This document shows, piece after piece, positions 1-7,755 of a stretch of DNA of 12,626 nt. The position numbers and the translations under genes are program-made. Positions within the stretch are counted from its first letter, which is position 1, and every line of letters starts with the position of its first letter. Source of the DNA: JBFMHD01 sp040752395 [NCBI: Candidatus Hydrogenedentota bacterium] (lineage in GTDB: Bacteria > JBFMHD01); contig JBFMHD010000067.1 of assembly GCA_040752395.1 (NCBI GenBank), forward strand, positions 1 through 12,626. Direction: 5' to 3'. The notes under the pieces were generated by a model. The model had not been told where the DNA came from. It made no database searches and saw only the letters and a list, made by a program, of their open reading frames with translations.

Positions 1-140
1 AATTGCAAATTGTAAATTTATTTGCCTACTACGGGTCTTGTGACCCTTACTACTTCTTTGTGCCTTTGTGCCTCTGTGCCTCAAGAAGCAGTAAGGGTCA
101 CAAGACCCGTAGTAGGCAAATAAATTTACAATTTGCAATT
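1..140. repeat. 51-bp perfect inverted repeat (REP pair/BIME-like) upstream of flbD
   Basis: Bases 1-51 are the exact reverse complement of 90-140. After one mismatch (52/89) the pairing resumes for 6 bp (53-58 with 83-88). The 24-base loop (59-82) is three tandem octamers, TGTGCCTT, TGTGCCTC and TGTGCCTC. Each arm holds a small palindrome, GGGTC-ACAA-GACCC, and three AATTT[A/G]C heptamers (123-143 in the right arm). A further copy of the right arm lies at 6559-6632 before fliQ. An inverted pair plus a solo copy is how REP/BIME elements are arranged; that identity is inferred. The left end may extend beyond the window. As RNA or single-stranded DNA it would fold into a very stable hairpin. 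Confidence 0.93.
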
Positions 141-144
141 TACA

Positions 145-174
145 ATGGAGCGAAGCAACAAGTGTAGTCTATGA
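145..174 (+). other. possible 9-codon leader ORF overlapping the flbD start
   Basis: ATG at 145 opens a 9-codon frame, MERSNKCSL, whose TGA (172-174) overlaps the flbD start codon as ATGA. flbD has no clear Shine-Dalgarno sequence, so the short frame could deliver ribosomes by coupling. It is encoded by the tail of the repeat element. The related copy before fliQ has ATA at the matching place, so the ORF may be chance. Confidence 0.2.
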
Positions 175-368
175 TCAAAGTAACGAGGTTAAATCAGACT
201 GAGTTTTATGTGAATCCGCATCAGATCGAGTTTATGGAAGCTACGCCTGATGTTGTGATTTCACTTGTATCTGGTAAGAAGATAGTTATAGCTGAAAAGA
301 TTGAAGAGATTTTACAGAGGATCATAGAGTATCGGCGTAAGATAGGGATAAACATAGCAGATGATTAG
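171..368 (+). CDS. flbD: FlbD family flagellar protein
   Basis: This 65-residue protein matches the small FlbD family found in flagellar operons of spirochaetes, Firmicutes and related groups. It begins MIKVTRLNQTEFYVNP, followed by the family pattern of QIEF at about 18-21, TPDVVI at 25-30, SGKK at 34-37 and an acidic-basic C-terminal helix. The family is small and cytoplasmic, and its biochemical role is not settled. No transmembrane segment is visible. There is no good Shine-Dalgarno sequence ahead of ATG 171; the start overlaps the stop of a tiny leader frame. In comparable operons motA and motB follow flbD, but here fliL comes next after a 150-bp gap with its own promoter. The identification is firm; the function is not established. 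Confidence 0.9.
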   Translation: MIKVTRLNQTEFYVNPHQIEFMEATPDVVISLVSGKKIVIAEKIEEILQRIIEYRRKIGINIADD

Positions 369-386
369 ACCGATATATATTTAGGA

Positions 387-438
387 GGAGACAGGAGACA
401 GATAAATTGTTACTGATACTTCTTGCTTCTTACTTCTT
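387..438 (+). repeat. tandem heptamers in the flbD-fliL gap
   Basis: Two copies of GGAGACA (387-400) are followed after a short spacer by ACTTCTT-GCTTCTT-ACTTCTT (418-438). Both words recur in the fliL-protease gap (GGAGACA at 1240-1253, ACTTCTT at 1186-1199), where the 12-mer CTGATACTTCTT is also shared. These are 7-bp short tandem repeats of the kind filling other gaps of the window. Confidence 0.85.
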
Positions 439-462
439 TTAGGAGAAGATAGTAAGTAAGGA

Positions 463-490
463 TTGACAATTTGATTTTTTTGAGTATAAT
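463..490 (+). promoter_or_regulatory. sigma-70-type promoter for fliL and downstream genes
   Basis: A perfect -35 hexamer TTGACA (463-468) and a perfect -10 hexamer TATAAT (485-490) are separated by 16 bp. Transcription would start near 496-498, leaving a leader of about 22 nt. This holds the Shine-Dalgarno GAGGAGG (501-507), 11 nt before the fliL ATG. It is the only full consensus promoter I found in the window, so housekeeping sigma probably drives the switch and export genes from here. Confidence 0.75.
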
Positions 491-518
491 ATAAAGAAGA
501 GAGGAGGACTTAAATTTT

Positions 519-1142
519 ATGCCAGAAGAAAAAGATAGAAAGGTGGAAGATAAAAAGATAGACGAAAAAAAGGTTGACAGAGCAGAAAGACTAAGAGACG
601 AAGAAAAAAAAGATGAGAAAAAAGAAAAAAGGTTTGCGAAACTATCTTCTCCTCTTGTAAAAGTGATAATTCTTGGCATAATTTTTTTAACGCTGTTATC
701 AGTTACCACAGGTGTATCCGTGTATATGATAAAAAATATTACTCCAACGAATTGGGAACAAACAGGGGTAGAGACCAAGAATGTAGAGGAGCAGAAGGTT
801 CAGATTCAGGAGAAAAAACAGGAACCGCTTAAAACTTACAGAATTGAGGAACCGTTCAAACTTGTATTATATGACAAAGACGGGAACACGTACAGTATGA
901 GTATGAAGATTGCGTTCGGATTAAAGAAAGACCATGTAGAGGATGTTCTTATTGAGCTCGAGGCACGGTTCTCTGAGATAAAGGATATAATACTTCAGAC
1001 GATTTACAGTCAGAACCCTGCTGAATTAATCTACATCAATGGTCAGATATCATTAAAGATTGAGATTAAGAACAAAGTTAATGCGATATTGATAAGGCCG
1101 ATTGAGAGGGTATATTTTGAAGACTTTGTGATAAGCAAGTAA
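519..1142 (+). CDS. fliL: flagellar basal body-associated protein FliL
   Basis: The protein has 207 residues with the FliL layout: a cytoplasmic N-terminus, one membrane helix (about 46-71), a linker, and a periplasmic FliL domain (about 105-207). The family pattern is recognisable in EPFKLVLYD, SMKIAFGL, a central stretch with IKDIILQTIYSQ, and the closing IERVYFEDFVIS. FliL sits at the inner membrane around the MotAB stators and supports stator function and torque. The N-terminal 44 residues are unusually rich in Lys, Glu and Asp, longer and more charged than the typical FliL tail. ATG 519 is preceded by GAGGAGG and a strong promoter. The position ahead of fliM supports the call, although motAB are not adjacent. 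Confidence 0.88.
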   Translation: MPEEKDRKVEDKKIDEKKVDRAERLRDEEKKDEKKEKRFAKLSSPLVKVIILGIIFLTLLSVTTGVSVYMIKNITPTNWEQTGVETKNVEEQKVQIQEKKQEPLKTYRIEEPFKLVLYDKDGNTYSMSMKIAFGLKKDHVEDVLIELEARFSEIKDIILQTIYSQNPAELIYINGQISLKIEIKNKVNAILIRPIERVYFEDFVISK

Positions 1143-1286
1143 GATTGAAAGATTGAAAGATTGAAAGATTAAAATTTTTTCTGATACTTCTTACTTCTTA
1201 CTTTCAAAGGCACAGAGGCACAAAGGCACAAAGAAGACAGGAGACAGGAGACAGGAGGAGAAGGCACAAAGGCACAGAGGCACAAC
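1143..1286 (+). repeat. stacked 7- and 8-bp tandem repeats after fliL
   Basis: Directly after the fliL stop come three and a half GATTGAAA octamers (1143-1170), two ACTTCTT heptamers (1186-1199), and the octamers GGCACAGA, GGCACAAA and GGCACAAA (1209-1232). Next are the heptamers GAAGACA, GGAGACA, GGAGACA and GGAGGAG (1233-1260), then the octamers GGCACAAA, GGCACAGA and GGCACAAC (1263-1286). The GGCACA words are the reverse complement of the loop octamers at 59-82. No gene, RNA gene or terminator is visible here. Confidence 0.92.
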
Positions 1287-1472
1287 GTATGAAAAACTAA
1301 AGATGATATGAAAAGAGTCGTGAGTCGCAAGTTGTGAGTCAAAACAGGACTCGAGACTCAAGACTCAAGACTTTTCAGCAGGCTCCGGGCTTTTTGCTCC
1401 AGCAGGCTGTAGTCCGTAGGCTGTAGGCTGTAGCCCGAATTATTAGAGTTACAAAGTTTTTAATGGGAGGAG
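1271..1472 (+). repeat. leader repeat copy A, upstream of the protease gene
   Basis: Bases 1271-1309 are identical over 39 bp to 1899-1937, and similarity continues to the ribosome-binding site. The body reads in phase as heptamers: GAGTCGT, GAGTCGC, AAGTTGT, GAGTCAA (1315-1342); GACTCGA, GACTCAA, GACTCAA, GACTTTT (1348-1375); GGCTCCG, GGCTTTT, TGCTCCA (1381-1401); GGCTGTA, GTCCGTA, GGCTGTA, GGCTGTA, GCCCGAA (1405-1439). The GAGTC and GACTC blocks are complementary and could fold on each other as 5-bp stems with 2-base internal loops. The element ends in GGGAGGAG (1465-1472), which serves as the Shine-Dalgarno of the next gene. Confidence 0.92.
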
Positions 1473-1482
1473 TTGATACCAG

Positions 1483-1860
1483 ATGGCAGTGATTCAGAAA
1501 CAGGTTTTACTTGTAGGTTCTAAAGGGAAAAGAGAGGTTCAAGCATTATTTGATAGTGGAGCAAGTTACTCTTGCTTAAATCCTAAATTAGCAAAAGAGA
1601 TTGAACAAATAATACCGCTTCCTGAACCGAGGGAGTTTGGTACTGCTAAAGATGGTGATAAATTAAGAGCAAAAGAGCGGGTAAGTTTAGATTTCTACAT
1701 TGATAACCTGCGGTTCTCAGACGAGTTTATGCTAATAGAAGATTTATCAGAGGAAGCGATAATAGGTTCTGCAACGCTGCAGAAGTGGAGGATGAAATTA
1801 GATTTTGAGCATGATGAGGTTATTCTTGATCCACGTGTTACTAAATTAAGATTGTTATAG
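1483..1860 (+). CDS. retropepsin-like aspartic protease (clan AA), single domain
   Basis: The protein has 125 residues. It carries one retropepsin-type active-site motif, ALFDSGAS (22-29, catalytic D24), in a beta-rich context. A hydrophobic strand then IIGSATLQKW (93-102) match the second half-motif of clan AA proteases, where IIG or ILG precedes a helix. With only one DSG per chain it would have to act as a homodimer, as retroviral proteases do. No signal peptide or membrane helix is visible, so it is probably cytoplasmic. The Shine-Dalgarno GGGAGGAG lies 10 nt before ATG 1483. It sits between fliL and fliM, where flagellar operons normally have no protease, and is flanked by two copies of one leader repeat. 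No reverse transcriptase or integrase is nearby, so it is not a retroelement. The substrate is unknown. Confidence 0.8.
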   Translation: MAVIQKQVLLVGSKGKREVQALFDSGASYSCLNPKLAKEIEQIIPLPEPREFGTAKDGDKLRAKERVSLDFYIDNLRFSDEFMLIEDLSEEAIIGSATLQKWRMKLDFEHDEVILDPRVTKLRLL

Positions 1861-2076
1861 GCAAGATGCAAGATAACGGAAAGAAAGATAACGAAAGAGG
1901 CACAGAGGCACAACGTATGAAAAACTAAAGATGATATAAAAAGAGTCGTGAGTCAAAACAGGACTTGAGACTCAAGACTTTTCAGCAGGCTTTTGGCTTT
2001 TGGCTCCAGCCGGCTGTAGTCCGTAGCCTGTAGTCTGTACCCCGAATTATTATAGTTACAATGTTTTTCAGAGGAG
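1861..2076 (+). repeat. leader repeat copy B, upstream of fliM
   Basis: After two GCAAGAT heptamers (1861-1874) and two AGATAACG words, copy B of the leader begins at 1899. It is shorter than copy A. The GAGTC block has two units (1943-1956) instead of four, and the GACT block has three (1962-1982) instead of four. GGCTTTT, GGCTTTT and GGCTCCA occupy 1988-2008, and GGCTGTA, GTCCGTA, GCCTGTA, GTCTGTA, CCCCGAA occupy 2012-2046. The closing segment CCGAATTATTA-AGTTACAA-GTTTTT is shared with copy A, and the repeat again runs into a Shine-Dalgarno, GAGGAG (2071-2076). No gene lies in this gap. Confidence 0.92.
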
Positions 2077-2082
2077 TAATCA

Positions 2083-3165
2083 GTGACTGATATATTGAGT
2101 CAGGATGAAATCGATGCGTTGTTATCAGCTATTTCATCAGGTGATTTAGCTGAAACCGAGGCACCGGCTGCTGTTATTGAAGAAGAGAAAGCAGTGCCAG
2201 CTGTTACAGTAACAAAAGCTGTCACCAAGAAAAAGATAAAAGTTTATGATTTTAAGCGGCCTGATAGATTTTCTAAAGACCAGATACGTACCCTTCAAAT
2301 GATGCATGAATCTTTTGCTCGGATGGCTACAACCGCGTTATCAGGCAGATTACGTGCTCTGACACATGTTCATGTCCAGTCAGTTGACCAGATGACGTAT
2401 GAAGAATTTATAAAGTCTATACCTCATATAACAACTATTGCAATAATCGATATGGCGCCTCTTAAAGGTAAAGCAGTATTTGAGATAGACCCGGGAATAA
2501 CCTATGCAATAATTGACAGATTGTTTGGTGGTGAAGGGAAAACACCGAATCTTGAACGTGAACTCACTGATGTCGAAGCCTCGGTAATGGAAAAAGTTAT
2601 AATCAGGCTACTTAACGATTTAAAAGAAGCGTGGGCAGGTGTTATCTTTCTCCGACCCAAACTTGATGCGCTCGAATCAAATCCACAGTTTGTTCAGGTT
2701 GTTCCACCAACTGATATGGTTGTTTTAGTAACTTTCTCAACCAAGATTGGTGATATAGAAGGGATGACCAATCTATGTATCCCATACATAACTATCGAAT
2801 CTATAGTTTCGAAACTTTCTGCACAATTATGGTATGCTTCAATTAGAAAAGGCGGTTCTTCAGAGAGTATGCAGGCATTAAGGAAAAGAATAAGTAATAT
2901 TTATGTACCTATTGTTGCTGAATTAGGGGCTACAAAAGTTTCATTTGACCAGATTTTATCTTTACAGACAGGAGACGTTATTAAACTTGATAATAAACAT
3001 AAAGAAGATATTACAGTTAAAGTCGGGTTACAGACTAAATTTAAATGCAGACCAGGTGTATCCGGCTCTAAAAAAGCTATACAGATAACAGGTATAGCAG
3101 ATGTGACATTGTCTGATGAATTAAGTCAGAGTGTTACTAAAGGAGGTGAACTCGCAAATGAGTAA
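2083..3165 (+). CDS. fliM: flagellar motor switch protein FliM
   Basis: The protein has 360 residues and all three FliM parts. The N-terminal CheY-binding peptide LSQDEIDALLS is at 5-15. After an Ala/Val/Glu-rich linker (about 20-50) comes the CheC-like middle domain (about 55-250), carrying the GGEG loop (149-152) of the family GGxG motif. The C-terminal SpoA domain lies at about 280-345. FliM builds the C-ring and connects CheY-P binding to FliG and rotor switching. The start is GTG 2083, with GAGGAG 6 nt upstream; translation from here gives the CheY-binding peptide right at the N-terminus, which supports the choice. The stop overlaps the start of the next gene by 8 nt. Confidence 0.97.
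   Translation: MTDILSQDEIDALLSAISSGDLAETEAPAAVIEEEKAVPAVTVTKAVTKKKIKVYDFKRPDRFSKDQIRTLQMMHESFARMATTALSGRLRALTHVHVQSVDQMTYEEFIKSIPHITTIAIIDMAPLKGKAVFEIDPGITYAIIDRLFGGEGKTPNLERELTDVEASVMEKVIIRLLNDLKEAWAGVIFLRPKLDALESNPQFVQVVPPTDMVVLVTFSTKIGDIEGMTNLCIPYITIESIVSKLSAQLWYASIRKGGSSESMQALRKRISNIYVPIVAELGATKVSFDQILSLQTGDVIKLDNKHKEDITVKVGLQTKFKCRPGVSGSKKAIQITGIADVTLSDELSQSVTKGGELANE
3141..3148 (+). promoter_or_regulatory. Shine-Dalgarno that sets the fliN/fliY start
   Basis: AGGAGGTG inside the end of fliM lies 9 nt before ATG 3158. The upstream in-frame GTG at 3131 precedes this site, so ATG 3158 is the likelier start. The protein then opens MSNGTLSQDEIDALL. Confidence 0.85.
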
Positions 3166-4243
3166 TGGTACTTTATCGCAGGATGAAATTGATGCCTTGT
3201 TATCTGAGGCAGTTGGAGGTCCCCAAACTAAAAAAACTATTGAAACTCAAATAGAAATCGGTGGTATAACTGACCGAGAGAAATCTGACCTGACTAAAAT
3301 TTTCTCTGAAATATTAGTTTCAGGTGGTGTAGTGATCGGAACGATACTGAACAGAACTGCAAATTTTAAAAATGTTCATTGTAAAATTTTAAATTTATCA
3401 GAGATAGGTTCGGATATAAATAAAAAGGCAATCATAGCTTCAACAGATTTTAAAGATGCCATTTCTGGCAGGATAAATTTTATTATTTCTTTTGAAGATA
3501 CGTTAAAAATATCTGATATTATTCTTGGCGAAACAACTGAAGCAAAAGAAGAAGCAGAATTTACTATTCAACAGAAAAACGCTTTCACTGAGGTGATGAA
3601 TCAGTTTTACAGTTCATTCTCGCATTCGCTAACTGAGAAATTAGGTAGATCTATTACACAGGGATCAGTTACATTGAAAACAATCAAACCAGGCGAGAAA
3701 ATTGATCTTGGGATAAGTGATAATGAAATTGTTTCTATTGAAAGTGATTTAAATGTAGAAGGCGTTATGGAGAATAAGGTGAGGATTATTATGCCAGTAG
3801 CTGTGGCAAGAGATATCAATCAGATGATTTCTGGTGGTGTTAAAGAATACACTGTTAAGGAGATAAAAACAGAGGTTAGACCTGCTGCTACTCCGCTAAC
3901 ACCCAGCGTGCCACAGGAAACAGGGGTAAGAGTTAAACCAGTTCAGTTTCAGCAATTTGGGGCTACGACACAAGAACCCTTACCAACTAATATGCAGTTA
4001 CTTCTTGATGTGCCGATGGATGTTACAGTGGAGCTTGGCAGAACCCGTAAATTAGTAAGAGACGTTCTTGAACTCGGCACCGGCTCAATAATTGAACTTG
4101 ATAAATTAGCAGGCGAGCCTGTTGATATAATGGTGAACGGAAAACTTGTGGCCAAAGGCGAGGTTGTTGTAATAGATGAAAATTTTGGTGTAAGAGTTAC
4201 TGATATTATAACGCCGATGGAAAGACTGGTGAATTTGCAGTAA
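3158..4243 (+). CDS. fliY: flagellar motor switch protein FliN, FliY-like with CheC-type middle domain
   Basis: From ATG 3158 the protein has 361 residues, far more than a short FliN, and has the FliY layout. An N-terminal CheY-binding motif LSQDEIDALLS (6-16) matches that of FliM. A CheC/FliY-like middle domain spans about 40-225, a Pro/Thr-rich linker about 235-275, and a classic FliN/SpoA domain 280-358 (VELGRTRKLVRDVL, GSIIELDKLAGEPVDIMVNG). FliY in Bacillus is both a C-ring component and a CheY-P phosphatase. Here the second phosphatase half-site keeps E145 and N148 (TEVMNQF), while at the first half-site E51 is followed by V54 instead of Asn. Phosphatase activity may therefore be reduced. 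It overlaps fliM by 8 nt. The SpoA assignment is certain; fliY versus fliN is naming. Confidence 0.93.
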   Translation: MSNGTLSQDEIDALLSEAVGGPQTKKTIETQIEIGGITDREKSDLTKIFSEILVSGGVVIGTILNRTANFKNVHCKILNLSEIGSDINKKAIIASTDFKDAISGRINFIISFEDTLKISDIILGETTEAKEEAEFTIQQKNAFTEVMNQFYSSFSHSLTEKLGRSITQGSVTLKTIKPGEKIDLGISDNEIVSIESDLNVEGVMENKVRIIMPVAVARDINQMISGGVKEYTVKEIKTEVRPAATPLTPSVPQETGVRVKPVQFQQFGATTQEPLPTNMQLLLDVPMDVTVELGRTRKLVRDVLELGTGSIIELDKLAGEPVDIMVNGKLVAKGEVVVIDENFGVRVTDIITPMERLVNLQ

Positions 4244-4356
4244 TAAAATTTAGCTATTTTATTAATTCCTGGCGAGATTTTTATAAATAGAGATAATTTC
4301 ATTAAAAGTGCTAAAGTAATAAGAAGTGAATTAAAGATATTGATGAAGATGTAATT

Positions 4357-4692
4357 ATGAGGACAAAAAAACTTACAGATAAAATAATAGTTGAAACATT
4401 AGAAAAAAAGAGTGAGATACTTAAAAAATACGGAGTTAAAAAAATAGGACTATTTGGTTCTTTTATGAAGGCTAAACAGAAGAAAAATAGTGATATTGAT
4501 TTTCTTATTGAATTTGAATTAAATATGTTTGGTGAAAACTTTAAAGGACTTTATGAAGCATTTATGGATTTATCAGATTATCTTGAAAATCTTTTCCATA
4601 GAAAAGTAGAGATATTAACCCCAATAAGTATAGAAACTATAAGAATAAAAAGGATTGCAGATGAGATAAAAAGGAGCGTAGTTTATGTTTAA
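4357..4692 (+). CDS. mntA: MntA-like nucleotidyltransferase antitoxin (MNT domain)
   Basis: The protein has 111 residues with the minimal nucleotidyltransferase fold. It shows GLFGSF at 31-36, then the GSx10DxD pattern (G34, S35, D46, D48) and a third acidic residue, E85, in KVEIL. In the MntA/HepT (type VII) family this enzyme neutralises HepT by adding AMP units to the tyrosine of the RX4HXY motif. The last 8 nt overlap hepT, as is usual for the pair. It interrupts the flagellar operon between fliN/fliY and fliO. The preceding 113-bp gap has no repeats and no convincing promoter or Shine-Dalgarno; it holds only an AT-only 9-bp dyad (4241-4264). The partner toxin is broken, so the antitoxin may be unneeded or may act in trans. 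Confidence 0.85.
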   Translation: MRTKKLTDKIIVETLEKKSEILKKYGVKKIGLFGSFMKAKQKKNSDIDFLIEFELNMFGENFKGLYEAFMDLSDYLENLFHRKVEILTPISIETIRIKRIADEIKRSVVYV

Positions 4693-5032
4693 AAGAGGGG
4701 ATTTAGAATTTTTGATAGATATTAAAGAGGCAATAAAGAGGATAGAAACTTATATTAACAAAGTAGATTATGAAGAATTTTAAAAAAATATAGAAAAGCA
4801 AGATGCGGTCATCAGAAACCTGGAAATCATTGGTGAGGCGGTAAAGAACCTCTCACCTTATATTAGAAAAAAACAGAAGGATATTGAATGGAGAAATTTT
4901 GCTGGAATGAGAGATAAAATAATCCATTTTTATTTTGGAATAAAATGGGATATTGTGTGGTCTGTTATTAAAAATAAGATACCCGAACTTAAAACAAAAA
5001 TTAAAATAATACTGAGAGATTTGGAAAAATAA
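4685..5032 (+). pseudogene. hepT: HepT-like HEPN toxin gene interrupted by an in-frame TAA
   Basis: Reading from ATG 4685 gives a HEPN protein of 115 codons broken by TAA at codon 33 (4781-4783). The frame is unchanged on both sides, so this is a nonsense substitution, most simply TTA (Leu) to TAA, and not a frameshift. After the stop the family pattern continues: QDAVIRNLEIIGEAVKNL, then IEWRNFAGM, then the RX4HXY catalytic motif (R76, H81, Y83; RDKIIHFY), ending ILRDLEK. HepT is an RNA-targeting nuclease toxin controlled by MntA. The product as written would be 32 residues and inactive. The only nearby in-frame restart is ATG 4907, just before the RX4H motif, and it would lack most of the fold. 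The stop codon shares one base with the fliO start (TAATG). Confidence 0.85.
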
Positions 5033-5622
5033 TGAGACCTGATAAAAACAAAGAAAACATTAAAATAAAGAGAGTTATTTTATGTGTTTTAGTATTATTT
5101 ATTTATTTTTTACTTATAACAAATACTCTAACCATAGAATCTGATACAAAAATAAGTAATATTCAGAGTGTGAAAACCGGGTTGGAATCTATTTCTGTCA
5201 AACAAGCAGAATATTCTTTTACAGGCCTTTTCATAAAGACAGTTATCGGACTTTTGATAATAATAGTAATAATATTTGTTATTTCCAGGTTTTTATGGCG
5301 GGGTAGAAGAATCTTTGAAAGAAAAAGTAATATTATTAAACAGCATTATATCTATCCGCTGGGAACGAATAAGTATCTTCTTTTAGTAGAGTTCAGCGAA
5401 AAATTGCTTCTTTTAGGAGTGACAGAAAATTCAATAAATTGCTTGACAGAAATAACAGAAAAAGACAAAATCGACAATATAAAGTTAGAATTAAGCAGGA
5501 GTGAGAAAAAGGGTTCGTTTACGAGTATTTTCAGGGAAGAAACAGAGAATAATAAAGGAATGGTTGACAAAAAAATCGACGAGTCATTGATTGATCGAAT
5601 TCGCAGACTAAAAGAGAGATAG
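5032..5622 (+). CDS. fliO: flagellar biosynthesis protein FliO (FliZ-like)
   Basis: The protein has 196 residues. A hydrophobic N-terminal segment (14-31) could be a signal peptide or membrane helix. After a short outside region comes a strong membrane helix (about 63-88), followed by the cytoplasmic FliO domain (about 95-145) with YIYPLGTNKYLLLVEF and LLLLGVTENSI, the recognisable family core. The charged tail ends IDRIRRLKER. FliO helps assemble or stabilise the FliP-FliQ-FliR export gate. The ATG overlaps the last base of the hepT frame, with only a weak GGA upstream, so its translation may depend on ribosomes from upstream; the premature hepT stop could weaken that coupling. The position directly before fliP supports the call. 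Confidence 0.85.
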   Translation: MRPDKNKENIKIKRVILCVLVLFIYFLLITNTLTIESDTKISNIQSVKTGLESISVKQAEYSFTGLFIKTVIGLLIIIVIIFVISRFLWRGRRIFERKSNIIKQHYIYPLGTNKYLLLVEFSEKLLLLGVTENSINCLTEITEKDKIDNIKLELSRSEKKGSFTSIFREETENNKGMVDKKIDESLIDRIRRLKER

Positions 5623-5661
5623 TTTAAGATTAAAAACGAAGTAATCTACGGAGCAATGTTC

Positions 5662-6498
5662 ATGGGAGGGAATGTAGTACAATCCGCAACTTATATCTTA
5701 CAATTTACAAATTACCTAAATAGGATTTGCAGGTTTAAAAAATATTTCTTTATTATTTTAATATTCCTATTCTTTTTTTGGAGTCGGATTTACGGAGCGG
5801 GTGAAGATTTAAATCTTCCGTTACCTGTACCAAAAGTTAATATCGACATAACAGAAGCAAAATCGCCAGAAGAAGTATCAACAGCATTACAGCTTCTTTT
5901 CCTTTTAACAATACTTGCTTTAGCGCCCTCTATAATTTTAATGACCACCTCATTTGTACGTGTGGCAATAATCTTATCGTTTATAAAAAGAGCGTTATCA
6001 CTCCAGGATTTGCCGCCAAATCAAGTAATGATGTCACTCGCTTTGTTCCTCACTTTTTTTATAATGGCTCCCACCTTTTTAAAAATAAATAACGAGGCTA
6101 TTCAGCCTTATCTGAAAGGAGAAATTACTCAAAGAGAGGCTCTTTCTAAAGCGATGGTGCCATTAAGAGAATTTATGTTTAAACAAACCCGCGAAAAAGA
6201 CATAGCTTTATTTGTAAAATTAGGGAATTTAGAAAGACCTAAAAATATGAATGATATCCCAACTTATATTCTTGTGCCAGCATTTATGATATCTGAAATA
6301 CATATATCTTTTATTATGGGATTATATTTGTATTTACCCTTTGTTGTAATAGATATGGTTGTAGCCTCGACTTTGTTATCTATGGGTATGATAATGTTGC
6401 CGCCGGTTATGATATCATTACCTTTTAAAATATTATTGTTTATCGTTATTGATGGCTGGCATTTATTATCGTATGCGATCGTGAAGGCGTATATGTGA
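5662..6498 (+). CDS. fliP: flagellar export gate protein FliP
   Basis: From ATG 5662 the protein has 278 residues; FliP is usually near 245-250. GGAG (5650-5653) is 8 nt from this ATG but only 2 nt from the in-frame ATG 5656, so 5662 is preferred. A basic, then hydrophobic stretch (about 25-46) ending in YGAG looks like the cleaved FliP signal peptide. The family core follows: TSFVRVAIILSFIKRAL, DLPPNQVMMSLALFLTFFIM, then PAFMISEIHISF and the C-terminal helices ending VKAYM. FliP forms most of the export-gate channel in the inner membrane. The roughly 25 residues before the signal peptide are unusual and are encoded by DNA resembling degenerate AATTTAC heptamers. Confidence 0.95.
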   Translation: MGGNVVQSATYILQFTNYLNRICRFKKYFFIILIFLFFFWSRIYGAGEDLNLPLPVPKVNIDITEAKSPEEVSTALQLLFLLTILALAPSIILMTTSFVRVAIILSFIKRALSLQDLPPNQVMMSLALFLTFFIMAPTFLKINNEAIQPYLKGEITQREALSKAMVPLREFMFKQTREKDIALFVKLGNLERPKNMNDIPTYILVPAFMISEIHISFIMGLYLYLPFVVIDMVVASTLLSMGMIMLPPVMISLPFKILLFIVIDGWHLLSYAIVKAYM

Positions 6499-6500
6499 TC

Positions 6501-6520
6501 CGACATTCTTTCGAATGTCG
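6501..6520 (+). other. stem-loop just after the fliP stop
   Basis: CGACATTC (6501-6508), a TTTC loop and GAATGTCG (6513-6520) form a perfect 8-bp stem two bases after the fliP stop codon. There is no T-run after it, so it is not an intrinsic terminator. It could protect mRNA ends or mark the start of the inserted repeat block. Confidence 0.6.
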
Positions 6521-6640
6521 AATTGAAAATTGAAGTTAAAGGAACAAAGGAACAAAGTAGTAAGGGTCACAAGACCCGTAGTAGGCAAATAAATTTGCAA
6601 TTTGCAATTTAAAATTTGCAATAGAGCGAAGCGACAGAGG
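6521..6640 (+). repeat. solo REP-like element and tandem words upstream of fliQ
   Basis: The block starts with AATTGAA twice (6521-6534) and GGAACAAA twice (6541-6556). From 6559 it matches the right arm of the 1-140 element exactly for 38 bp, including the palindrome GGGTC-ACAA-GACCC. It then has four AATTT-type heptamers (6592-6619) where the first copy has three, and the shared tail GAGCGAAGC. TAGTA flanks the palindrome on both sides as a direct repeat. The block ends next to the fliQ Shine-Dalgarno AGAGGAGG (6636-6643). Confidence 0.9.
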
Positions 6641-6650
6641 AGGCTTAACA

Positions 6651-6929
6651 ATGAGTATTAACGAAGTAGTAGCTATAGCTCGAGACACTATCTGGATAGC
6701 TATATACACTGCTGCACCTATGTTATTAACGAGCATCATTGTAGGACTTGGTATCAGCATACTTCAAACAACAACCTCTATTCAGGAACAGACGCTTACC
6801 TTTGTACCTAAATTAGTAGCTATTTTTGTGGTGACAGTGTTGTTCGGTGGTTTTATGACACAGACGATGATGGATTTTACAATCCAGATTTTCGAGAAAA
6901 TAATGAATATCAAAGCAAGCAATTTCTAG
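6651..6929 (+). CDS. fliQ: flagellar export gate protein FliQ
   Basis: The protein has 92 residues with two membrane helices (about 14-37 and 52-75), the standard FliQ size and layout. The family pattern is seen in the N-terminal amphipathic stretch, GLGISILQTTTSIQEQTLTFVPKL, and the hydrophobic AIFVVTVLFGG. FliQ packs around FliP and FliR in the export gate. ATG 6651 follows AGAGGAGG with 7-nt spacing. A 152-bp gap with a REP-like element separates it from fliP, although these genes are usually close together; the repeat probably inserted between them. Confidence 0.95.
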   Translation: MSINEVVAIARDTIWIAIYTAAPMLLTSIIVGLGISILQTTTSIQEQTLTFVPKLVAIFVVTVLFGGFMTQTMMDFTIQIFEKIMNIKASNF

Positions 6930-6954
6930 ATATCACATCAGTTATAAGTGATAT
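6930..6954 (+). other. 7-bp dyad in the fliQ-fliR gap
   Basis: ATATCAC (6930-6936) and GTGATAT (6948-6954) are perfect reverse complements separated by 11 bases, directly after the fliQ stop. It could be a weak hairpin or a binding site; in AT-rich DNA chance is also possible. Confidence 0.35.
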
Positions 6955-6961
6955 AATAAAA

Positions 6962-6984
6962 GCAAGAGGCAAGAGGCAAGAAGC
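6962..6984 (+). repeat. GCAAGAG heptamers abutting the fliR start
   Basis: GCAAGAG, GCAAGAG and GCAAGAA (6962-6982) plus GC run straight into the fliR ATG. There is no better Shine-Dalgarno, so the repeat's own AAGAGG must serve as the ribosome-binding site if one is used. Confidence 0.8.
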
Positions 6985-7755
6985 ATGGAGATAATCCTTT
7001 ATCATTTCAGGACTTTTTTTATAGTTTTTTCAAGGGTATCGGGCTTGTTTGTTGCTACACCGGTTTTTGCTTCGCAATCAATACCAATGATTTCAAAAGG
7101 CACACTCGCTTTTTTTATCTCTTTAATATTGTACCCTATTGTGAATGCTCATATCCCCAAAACGCCTGATTCAATGGTATCCTATTTATTTTTATGTGGC
7201 CAGGAGGTACTGATAGGTCTGATCATTGGTTTGACTGCGGCGGTAATAATACAGATTTTTCAAATATCAGCTGAATTTTACAGCACTCAGATTGGTTTTG
7301 GGATAATGAGTGTTTTTGATCCTTTAAGTGAAAACAATATCCCGCTAATCGGTCATTTTCAGGCGCTTCTTGGACTAATGATATTTCTACTATTAAGTGG
7401 AGATGCGTTTATTTTGATGGGGCTTAAGGATAGTTTTGTGTTATGGGAGACCATCTCTATTAACAATGCAGAATCGTTTTACAAAATATTTTTCGATATA
7501 ATTCACATGGTATTTATTGTTAGTTTTCAGATAGGTGCGCCTTTGATGGCGACTATGTTTCTTATCTCTGTTGCATCAGGCCTTCTCTCGCGTGCAGCAC
7601 CGCAAATGAATATACTTATTGTTGAGTTGCCGATAAAGATTGTTATTGGATTATTGAGTCTGGCAATACTGATGCCAATCTTTTTTAAATTAGGTGGCGA
7701 AGTGATAACAAAAATAGATTATTATATTCGAGTTTTAGTAAAAGTATGTGGCTAA
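6985..7755 (+). CDS. fliR: flagellar export gate protein FliR
   Basis: The protein has 256 residues, the normal FliR length, and is very hydrophobic, with about six membrane segments. Family features include the N-terminal FSRVSGLFVATPVFASQSIP, the central GLIIGLTAAVIIQIFQISAEF, QIGFGIMSVFDPLSENNIPLIG, and RAAPQMNILIVELPIKI near the C-terminus. FliR completes the FliPQR gate through which rod, hook and filament proteins are exported. The start sits directly after GCAAGAG tandem heptamers, with no ordinary Shine-Dalgarno. The gene overlaps flhB by 10 nt. Confidence 0.96.
   Translation: MEIILYHFRTFFIVFSRVSGLFVATPVFASQSIPMISKGTLAFFISLILYPIVNAHIPKTPDSMVSYLFLCGQEVLIGLIIGLTAAVIIQIFQISAEFYSTQIGFGIMSVFDPLSENNIPLIGHFQALLGLMIFLLLSGDAFILMGLKDSFVLWETISINNAESFYKIFFDIIHMVFIVSFQIGAPLMATMFLISVASGLLSRAAPQMNILIVELPIKIVIGLLSLAILMPIFFKLGGEVITKIDYYIRVLVKVCG

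What the first reader, a model, noticed from the sequence alone, without database searches (positions are those of the whole stretch)
1143..2076. Intergenic DNA written in many different 7-bp tandem words
The non-coding gaps are tiled with tandem units of exactly 7 bp: GGAGACA, ACTTCTT, GAGTCGT, GACTCAA, GGCTTTT, GGCTGTA, GCAAGAT here, and AATTTGC, AATTGAA and GCAAGAG elsewhere in the window. A smaller 8-bp class has GATTGAAA, GGCACAAA and GGAACAAA. The words are unrelated in sequence but share the period, so the process counts length and not sequence. Heptanucleotide STRR sequences of heterocystous cyanobacteria are the closest known parallel, but a mosaic of ten or more words within a few hundred bases would be unusual. 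A shared slippage or copying mechanism with a 7-nt step is inferred.
Basis: partly seen in the sequence, partly recalled or inferred. Interest (0 to 1): 0.75.

Follow-up and report, generated by a model that had tools for sequence, protein, structure and literature searches.

The report
Seven-base repeat mosaics between flagellar genes
Several gaps between the flagellar genes of an uncultured bacterium are filled with many different seven-letter DNA repeats, a widespread but still unexplained habit of bacterial genomes, mixed here with one eight-letter repeat that, unusually, is the same word in other bacteria.

Summary
In the window's non-coding gaps, identity at lag 7 is 0.393 (z 9.1 against dinucleotide shuffles; lags 6 and 9 flat, lag 8 z 3.0); coding DNA shows no lag-7 excess over lags 5 and 8. 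Block copies in the window differ by 14, 7 and 7 bp inside tracts. The window's own genome is not held, so its genome-wide test could not be run. Elsewhere: G075, picked because it matched, has 24 non-coding period-7 runs against 0 at period 6 and 4 at period 8; 80 genomes have 18 period-7 runs against 3.6 expected. This is known and unexplained: heptamers are the most abundant intergenic tandem repeats of prokaryotes (PMC6344855); mixed heptamers and 7-nt indels are in print (PMC4679880). Slippage is the best explanation.

Three window heptads tested occur in 1, 2 and 1 of 317 genomes. The octamer GGCACARA occurs in 16 of 317, 322 match positions, against 3 of 317 and 3 for a scrambled unit and 8 and 27 for the backwards word. 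It is mostly transcript-sense between co-directional genes (18 of 20). That class is the less expected part.

The parts
1..140 (.). Near-perfect long hairpin (58-nt arms, 98% complementary) with an octamer array (CTTTGTGC, complement of GGCACAAA) in and next to the loop and AATTTAC/AATTTGC heptads at the tips
   Evidence: the repeat finder I1; RNA fold -94.2 kcal/mol, z -18; TRF rows 56-81 and 123-146
386..401 (+). Heptad tract AGGAGAC (same word as 1235-1257)
417..438 (+). Heptad tract TACTTCT (same word as 1185-1203)
   Evidence: 32-nt direct repeat D9 91%
1141..1174 (+). Octamer tract AAGATTGA, 4.2 copies, at the fliL stop codon
1185..1203 (+). Heptad tract TACTTCT
1205..1233 (+). Octamer array GGCACARA (the word shared with other genomes)
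   Evidence: the tandem 17-mer is in 16 of 317 other genomes
1235..1257 (+). Heptad tract AGACAGG
1261..1285 (+). Second octamer array GGCACARA
1270..1469 (+). Block copy A: end of the octamer array, spacer of about 26 nt, stem of GAGTCGT/GACTCAA heptads, stem of GGCTTTT/GGCTGTA-type heptads, AT-rich tail; ends 13 bp before the protease-like gene
   Evidence: direct repeats D1, D2, D4; alignment; fold z -3.2
1483..1860 (+). Aspartyl-protease-like gene between fliL and fliM, flanked by the two block copies; in the relative L001 fliL and fliM overlap
   Evidence: Pfam PF13650 E 5.5e-05, just under its cut-off; L001 ORFs
1861..1874 (+). Heptad pair GCAAGAT
1898..2076 (+). Block copy B upstream of fliM; lacks 14 bp and 7 bp that copy A has, both inside heptad tracts
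   Evidence: fold z -2.7
6521..6534 (+). Heptad pair AATTGAA
6538..6557 (+). Octamer tract AAAGGAAC
6555..6622 (+). One arm of the hairpin of 1-140 with AATTTGC heptads; 7 bp longer in the tract than the copy starting at 86
   Evidence: D3 95% over 61 nt; alignment
6962..6985 (+). Heptad tract GCAAGAG between fliQ and fliR

Best explanation
The gaps hold heptamer short tandem repeats made by replication slippage that adds or removes whole 7-nt units with little regard to the word. Shown here: the 7-bp period, its absence from the window's coding DNA, words that are hardly shared between genomes, and unit-sized length differences between block copies. Inferred: that DNA polymerase slippage is the agent, that 7 nt is the favoured step for a polymerase-contact or misalignment-loop reason, that point mutation then alters words in phase, and that occasional copying of whole blocks (direct at 1270-1469 and 1898-2076, inverted at 1-140) spreads them. 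The octamer GGCACARA is a second class that also keeps its word and, mostly, its strand; the slippage model alone does not explain that.
For: Lag-7 z 9.1 in gaps, no excess in coding, z 6.3 without the duplicate gap. Block copies differ by 14, 7 and 7 bp inside tracts (the gaps of 3, 3, 1 and 1 bp in the same alignments, and the ragged ends, lie outside tracts near the downstream genes). Period 7 stands out in G075 (24 non-coding runs against 0 at period 6 and 4 at period 8) and G002 (11 against 0 and 0); with other gene against 1 and 8, and 13 against 0 and 2; 80 genomes 18 against 3.6 expected. Heptad words are hardly shared. Three tract-bearing junctions are longer than in L001, where fliL-fliM, fliP-fliQ and fliQ-fliR overlap or nearly abut; in the window they are 940, 152 and 55 bp. 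In print: differences between two Cyanothece strains, mostly indels in 7-nt increments (PMC4679880 section 10), and heptamers as the most abundant intergenic tandem repeats of prokaryotes (PMC6344855 passage).
Against: No sister genome or reads of this organism were available, so no slippage event was observed. Between flbD and fliL the window's tract-bearing gap (150 bp) is not longer than L001's gap without tracts (243 bp). In the 80-genome survey periods 9 (13 against 2.0) and 14 (25 against 4.6) are also raised, only 11 of 80 genomes have any period-7 run, and one genome gives 5 of the 18. G125, G101 and G039, picked because they matched the window's words, show no clear lag-7 peak in the stretches sampled, and G075 has 13 period-7 runs in called ORFs. 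Length differences between anchors in G075 are not all multiples of 7. Plain slippage does not explain the shared, strand-biased octamer or why both arms of a stem change by heptads while still pairing. A heptad word shared across phyla (TAACTGA) is also in print.
Confidence: 0.6

Rival explanations
1. The tracts are cargo of a dispersed, palindromic non-autonomous element (MITE- or REP-like) that copies itself into intergenic sites; the heptads are just its internal structure.
For: Blocks are repeated in the window: 180-200 bp twice, and a hairpin arm at 86-146 and 6555-6615. The 1-140 hairpin folds at z -18. In G075 one heptad-rich 701-bp query gives 35 matches, its own place included. Octamer arrays can lie as inverted pairs (L257 1501 and 1577).
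Against: Several tracts in the window (386-401, 1141-1174, 1235-1257, 6962-6985) lie outside the repeated blocks; the same was not measured in G075. No transposase among the genes scanned with Pfam; target-site duplications were not looked for. A mobile element does not predict one period with differing words in different genomes.
Confidence: 0.2
2. The tracts are regulatory: binding sites or RNA structures controlling translation or termination of the flanking genes, as proposed for TAACTGA repeats.
For: Both block copies end 6-13 bp before the starts of downstream genes and fold better than most shuffles (z -3.2 and -2.7; 2 and 1 of 200 shuffles do as well). Octamers are transcript-sense in 18 of 20 co-directional gaps.
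Against: Heptad words differ from gap to gap and from genome to genome, which suits no single binding protein. The terminator scan of 1-7000 gives 3 found against 3.2 in shuffles. No expression data.
Confidence: 0.12
3. Artefact of assembly or binning of a metagenome contig.
For: The window starts inside a hairpin, a plausible place for a contig to end, and its source genome is not held.
Against: The pattern occurs in other, independently sequenced genomes (G075, G002) and, weakly, near flhA in one strain whose record is not marked as a metagenome assembly (Desulfosporosinus sp. I2, L038); here it lies inside an otherwise orderly flagellar operon.
Confidence: 0.03

Closest known systems
Intergenic heptamer tandem repeats of prokaryotes (SPADE survey, PMC6344855; over-representation credited to a 2007 study in PMC4692102)
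   Same: Unit of 7 bp, intergenic, many species, function unknown (passages seen)
   Different: Here the tracts form a dense mosaic inside one operon, mixed with a shared octamer and with hairpin blocks
TAACTGA and mixed heptamer repeats of Beggiatoaceae, Cyanobacteria and Bacteroidetes (PMC4679880)
   Same: Assemblages of several heptamers, 7-nt-step indels, relatives with shorter gaps lacking repeats (abstract and section 10 read)
   Different: TAACTGA is one heptad shared across phyla and is not among the window's tracts. The shared word here is an octamer, mostly after stop codons; in the Guaymas Maribeggiatoa most TAACTGA sets lie just before start codons
STRR heptanucleotides of heterocystous cyanobacteria
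   Same: Tandem heptanucleotides; PMC4692102 mentions three in Calothrix (passage).
   Different: The host encodes flagella, so is not a cyanobacterium by general knowledge; the STRR words themselves were not compared
Heptanucleotide and octanucleotide repeat families of Geobacter metallireducens (PMC2700814)
   Same: Three to five tandem heptamers or octamers per site, some sites paired on opposite strands (passages seen)
   Different: There each family is one consensus dispersed in about 16-49 places; here most gaps have their own words

Membership tests
Intergenic heptamer tandem repeats of prokaryotes | Tandem unit of 7 bp above neighbouring periods | tested here: met
   z 9.1 at lag 7, lags 6 and 9 flat, lag 8 z 3.0
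Intergenic heptamer tandem repeats of prokaryotes | Confined to or enriched in non-coding DNA | tested here: met
   Coding lag-7 identity equals lags 5 and 8
Intergenic heptamer tandem repeats of prokaryotes | Genome-wide in the host | not testable with these tools
   No genome held for the window
Intergenic heptamer tandem repeats of prokaryotes | Length varies in steps of 7 | tested here: met
   14, 7 and 7 bp inside tracts between block copies of the window; only three events
TAACTGA heptamer repeats (MacGregor 2015) | Unit TAACTGA | tested here: not met
   No such unit among the 28 TRF rows
STRR of heterocystous cyanobacteria | Cyanobacterial host | tested here: not met
   Flagellar operon; nearest FlhA among the capped results is 56-58% to an uncultured lineage named Hydrogenedentes CG07_42_17 and a second genome of its phylum
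MITE/REP-like mobile repeat | Palindromic unit in several copies | tested here: inconclusive
   One full hairpin, one single arm, one block in two copies; no genome to count copies
MITE/REP-like mobile repeat | Target-site duplication or linked transposase | not tested
   No empty site available

The most novel reading that the evidence does not exclude
Two processes are superposed: a length-specific heptad process whose words differ from genome to genome, and a sequence-specific octamer (GGCACARA)n that is one word shared by widely different bacteria, placed transcript-sense, usually just after stop codons. The octamer would then be an unnamed, widely distributed bacterial 3'-end element, spread horizontally or held by selection, that travels with heptad mosaics.
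Probability: 0.33. Interest if true: 0.62.

Novelty: new member of a known kind. Interest (0 to 1): 0.42.

Why it matters
Why prokaryotes favour a 7-bp tandem unit is an open question stated in print (PMC6344855 passage). Separating heptads that are hardly shared from an octamer that is shared gives that question two testable halves: a mutational one (what sets the step) and a sequence-specific one (why one octamer recurs, mostly sense-oriented, after genes in unlike genomes). It also warns that 'period only' and 'word' explanations must be tested separately.

Tried and rejected
Searching the own genome: not held. Exact search of the hairpin arm in viral contigs: none. GACTCAA repeats in viral contigs: 4 stretches. 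Closest FlhA relatives as carriers: in the stretches held, G001 has 0 and G010 has 1 non-coding period-7 run, and the flhA loci L001, L081 and L082 have none. Shared heptad vocabulary: not supported. Three window heptads occur in 1, 2 and 1 of 317 genomes (the last is G075, with one GGCTGTA array), while read backwards they occur in 0, 6 and 3 genomes; these patterns carry no degenerate letters, the octamer pattern has two. A reversed copy of the whole 283-nt stretch matched 11 of 145 genomes against 16 of 145 for the true one, so that comparison alone shows little; the octamer test with a CpG-free scrambled unit is cleaner. The octamer read backwards gave 8 of 317 genomes and 27 matches, but its unit contains a CpG. 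Octamer on plasmids and phages: weak matches only, best E 0.1 in 2 plasmid records, and E 5 in the 20 phage rows shown of 25 records; the low-complexity filter was on, so this is no clean negative. Orthologous tracts for G075: no second genome in its genus or family. Anchor-based length differences in G075: 12 intervals (0 three times, 7 twice, 42 three times, 60 twice, 29 and 53 once each), some of them the same pair counted in both orders, and not all multiples of 7. Strand bias of heptads by G over C: weak (G075 27 against 15 of 45) over a background skew of 0.22; by purine content 37 against 8 over a background of 58% purine; not claimed.

Full report
What is there. The window is a flagellar operon: flbD, fliL, an aspartyl-protease-like gene, fliM, a FliN-type gene, a nucleotidyltransferase with a HEPN-like neighbour (named from recall of the fold's motif, not from a hit), fliO, fliP, fliQ, fliR, flhB, flhA, and an SRP54-type GTPase gene I take to be flhF. 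Ten proteins were scanned with Pfam and all ten have a match, that of the protease-like one just under its cut-off; fliR and flhB are named by place and length, and flhA by its relatives. Nine non-coding gaps total 1477 bp. Identity at lag 7 in them is 0.393 against 0.286 in dinucleotide shuffles (z 9.1), lag 14 z 5.6, lag 8 z 3.0; lags 5, 6 and 9-11 are flat, lag 19 is z 3.6, and coding DNA shows no lag-7 excess over lags 5 and 8. Dropping the duplicated gap 1861-2082 leaves z 6.3, and the gaps outside the finding alone give z 3.4.

Anatomy. The span 1143-2076 holds two copies of one block of 180-200 bp, one before the protease-like gene and one before fliM. Each block runs: GGCACARA octamers, a spacer of about 26 nt, a stem whose arms are GAGTCGT and GACTCAA heptads (near reverse complements of each other), a second stem in which GGCTTTT-type heptads pair with GTAGNCT-type heptads, and an AT-rich tail (z -3.2 and -2.7). 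Copy B lacks 14 bp of one arm and 7 bp of the other arm of the first stem, and the stem still pairs. A second family is a 58-nt-arm hairpin at 1-140 with octamers at its loop (fold z -18); one arm recurs at 6555-6622 with 7 bp more of tract. These three length differences inside tracts are multiples of 7; gaps of 1 and 3 bp in the same alignments lie outside the tracts.

The gaps compared with a relative. In the window these junctions are 940 bp (including the protease-like gene), 152 bp and 55 bp, all with tracts. Against this, the flbD-fliL gap is 150 bp with tracts in the window and 243 bp without tracts in L001. L001's phylum has only two held genomes, so the window's lineage is poorly sampled.

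Other genomes. Of 80 FlhA loci, 2 (L035, L063) reach five non-coding period-7 or -8 runs. In 100 kb of G075 there are 24 non-coding period-7 runs against 0 at period 6 and 4 at period 8, with 13 more in called ORFs; in 87 kb of G002, 11 against 0 and 0; G101, G039, G125, G001, G010, G011 and G009 have 0 to 2 such runs and no clear peak. With other gene calls G075 gives 32 against 1 and 8 and G002 13 against 0 and 2. G075, G101, G039 and G125 were chosen because they matched the window's words, and G002 because L035 shows tracts. In a survey of one contig stretch from each of 80 genomes (80 of the 145; 12 of that call's 16 matching genomes are among them, the last batch partly hand-picked), non-coding runs number 18 at period 7 against 3.6 expected, 7 at period 8 against 3.6, 13 at period 9 against 2.0 and 25 at period 14 against 4.6; 11 of the 80 genomes hold the 18, one of them 5. 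So 7 is favoured but not alone, and genomes differ greatly.

Heptads are hardly shared, one octamer is. Canonical 7-mer classes number 9 in the window, 40 in the G075 DNA held and 16 in G002 with L035; overlaps are 1 (GGCTGTA), 0 and 2, against 0.34, 0.17 and 0.87 for letter-shuffled words (9, 31, 14 and 0, 0, 1 under a stricter mask). Three window heptads, searched as 17-mers in 317 genomes, occur in 1, 2 and 1 genomes; read backwards, in 0, 6 and 3. The octamer behaves otherwise: the 17-mer GGCACARAGGCACARAG occurs in 16 of 317 genomes at 322 positions, overlapping ones in one array counted apart (97 in G075, 61 in G311, 58 in G216, 45 in G200); a CpG-free scrambled unit in 3 of 317 at 3 positions; the backwards word in 8 of 317 at 27 positions. 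The twelve loci fetched, from twelve of these 16 genomes, range from 33% to 65% G+C, so they are hardly one clade, though kinship is not told. The window carries the octamer in four arrays.

Orientation. Taking single units or arrays of GGCACARAG in 31 loci (the window, 14 from G075, 16 others), 47 sites were found; 20 lie between genes of one direction, and 18 of these read GGCACARA on the coding strand (window 3 of 3, G075 8 of 8, others 7 of 9), 15 of the 18 within 80 bp after a stop codon. The other 27 were not counted (10 inside called ORFs, 7 convergent, 2 divergent, 8 at locus edges). Gene calls were simple ORFs, sites within one genome are not independent, and many loci were fetched because they carry the word.

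What is known. [quoted passage not shown] PMC4692102 credits the over-representation, and the idea of slippage set by the polymerase contact size, to a 2007 study (passages and Discussion read; the study itself not held). PMC4679880 describes mixed heptamers, relatives with shorter repeat-free gaps and mostly 7-nt-step indels between two Cyanothece strains (abstract and section 10 read). PMC2700814 describes heptamer and octamer families in Geobacter (passages). PMC12699852 reports no average enrichment of short tandem repeats in bacteria (passages), which fits an effect bound to some lineages. A full-text search for four forms of the octamer found one paper, on ovarian granulosa cells (listing only); this covers only the held open-access library.

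Verdict. The heptad mosaic is a dense example of a known, unexplained phenomenon, best read as slippage in 7-nt steps (confidence 0.6).

Noticed in passing
window 1-140: Near-perfect 58-nt-arm hairpin at the very start of the window with an octamer array at its loop; the contig may end here because of it.
   Followed up: partly
window 1483-1860: Aspartyl-protease-like gene between fliL and fliM, flanked by two copies of the same block, a layout that would allow its loss by recombination; L001 has no room for it at that junction.
   Followed up: partly
window 4357-5032: Nucleotidyltransferase (MNT-like) gene with a HEPN-like partner between the FliN-type gene and fliO, absent at that junction in L001; the HEPN-like frame has an internal stop.
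   Followed up: partly
window 463-490: Perfect sigma-70-type promoter match (TTGACA, 16 nt, TATAAT) upstream of fliL; the scan as a whole found 30 sites against 25.6 in shuffles.
   Followed up: no
L103 and L104 (viral contigs): Both carry a GAGTCTT heptad run in DNA that my mask calls coding, and L103 also a GGGGCAGA octamer-like tandem near its end.
   Followed up: no
G063, G251: The backwards control word GAATGAA has 18 and 22 matches in these genomes, which may be further heptad-rich genomes with words of their own.
   Followed up: no
80-genome survey: Periods 9 and 14 are also raised in non-coding DNA.
   Followed up: no
L257 1501-1590, L246 1500-1642: GGCACARA-like arrays as inverted pairs about 45-115 bp apart.
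   Followed up: no
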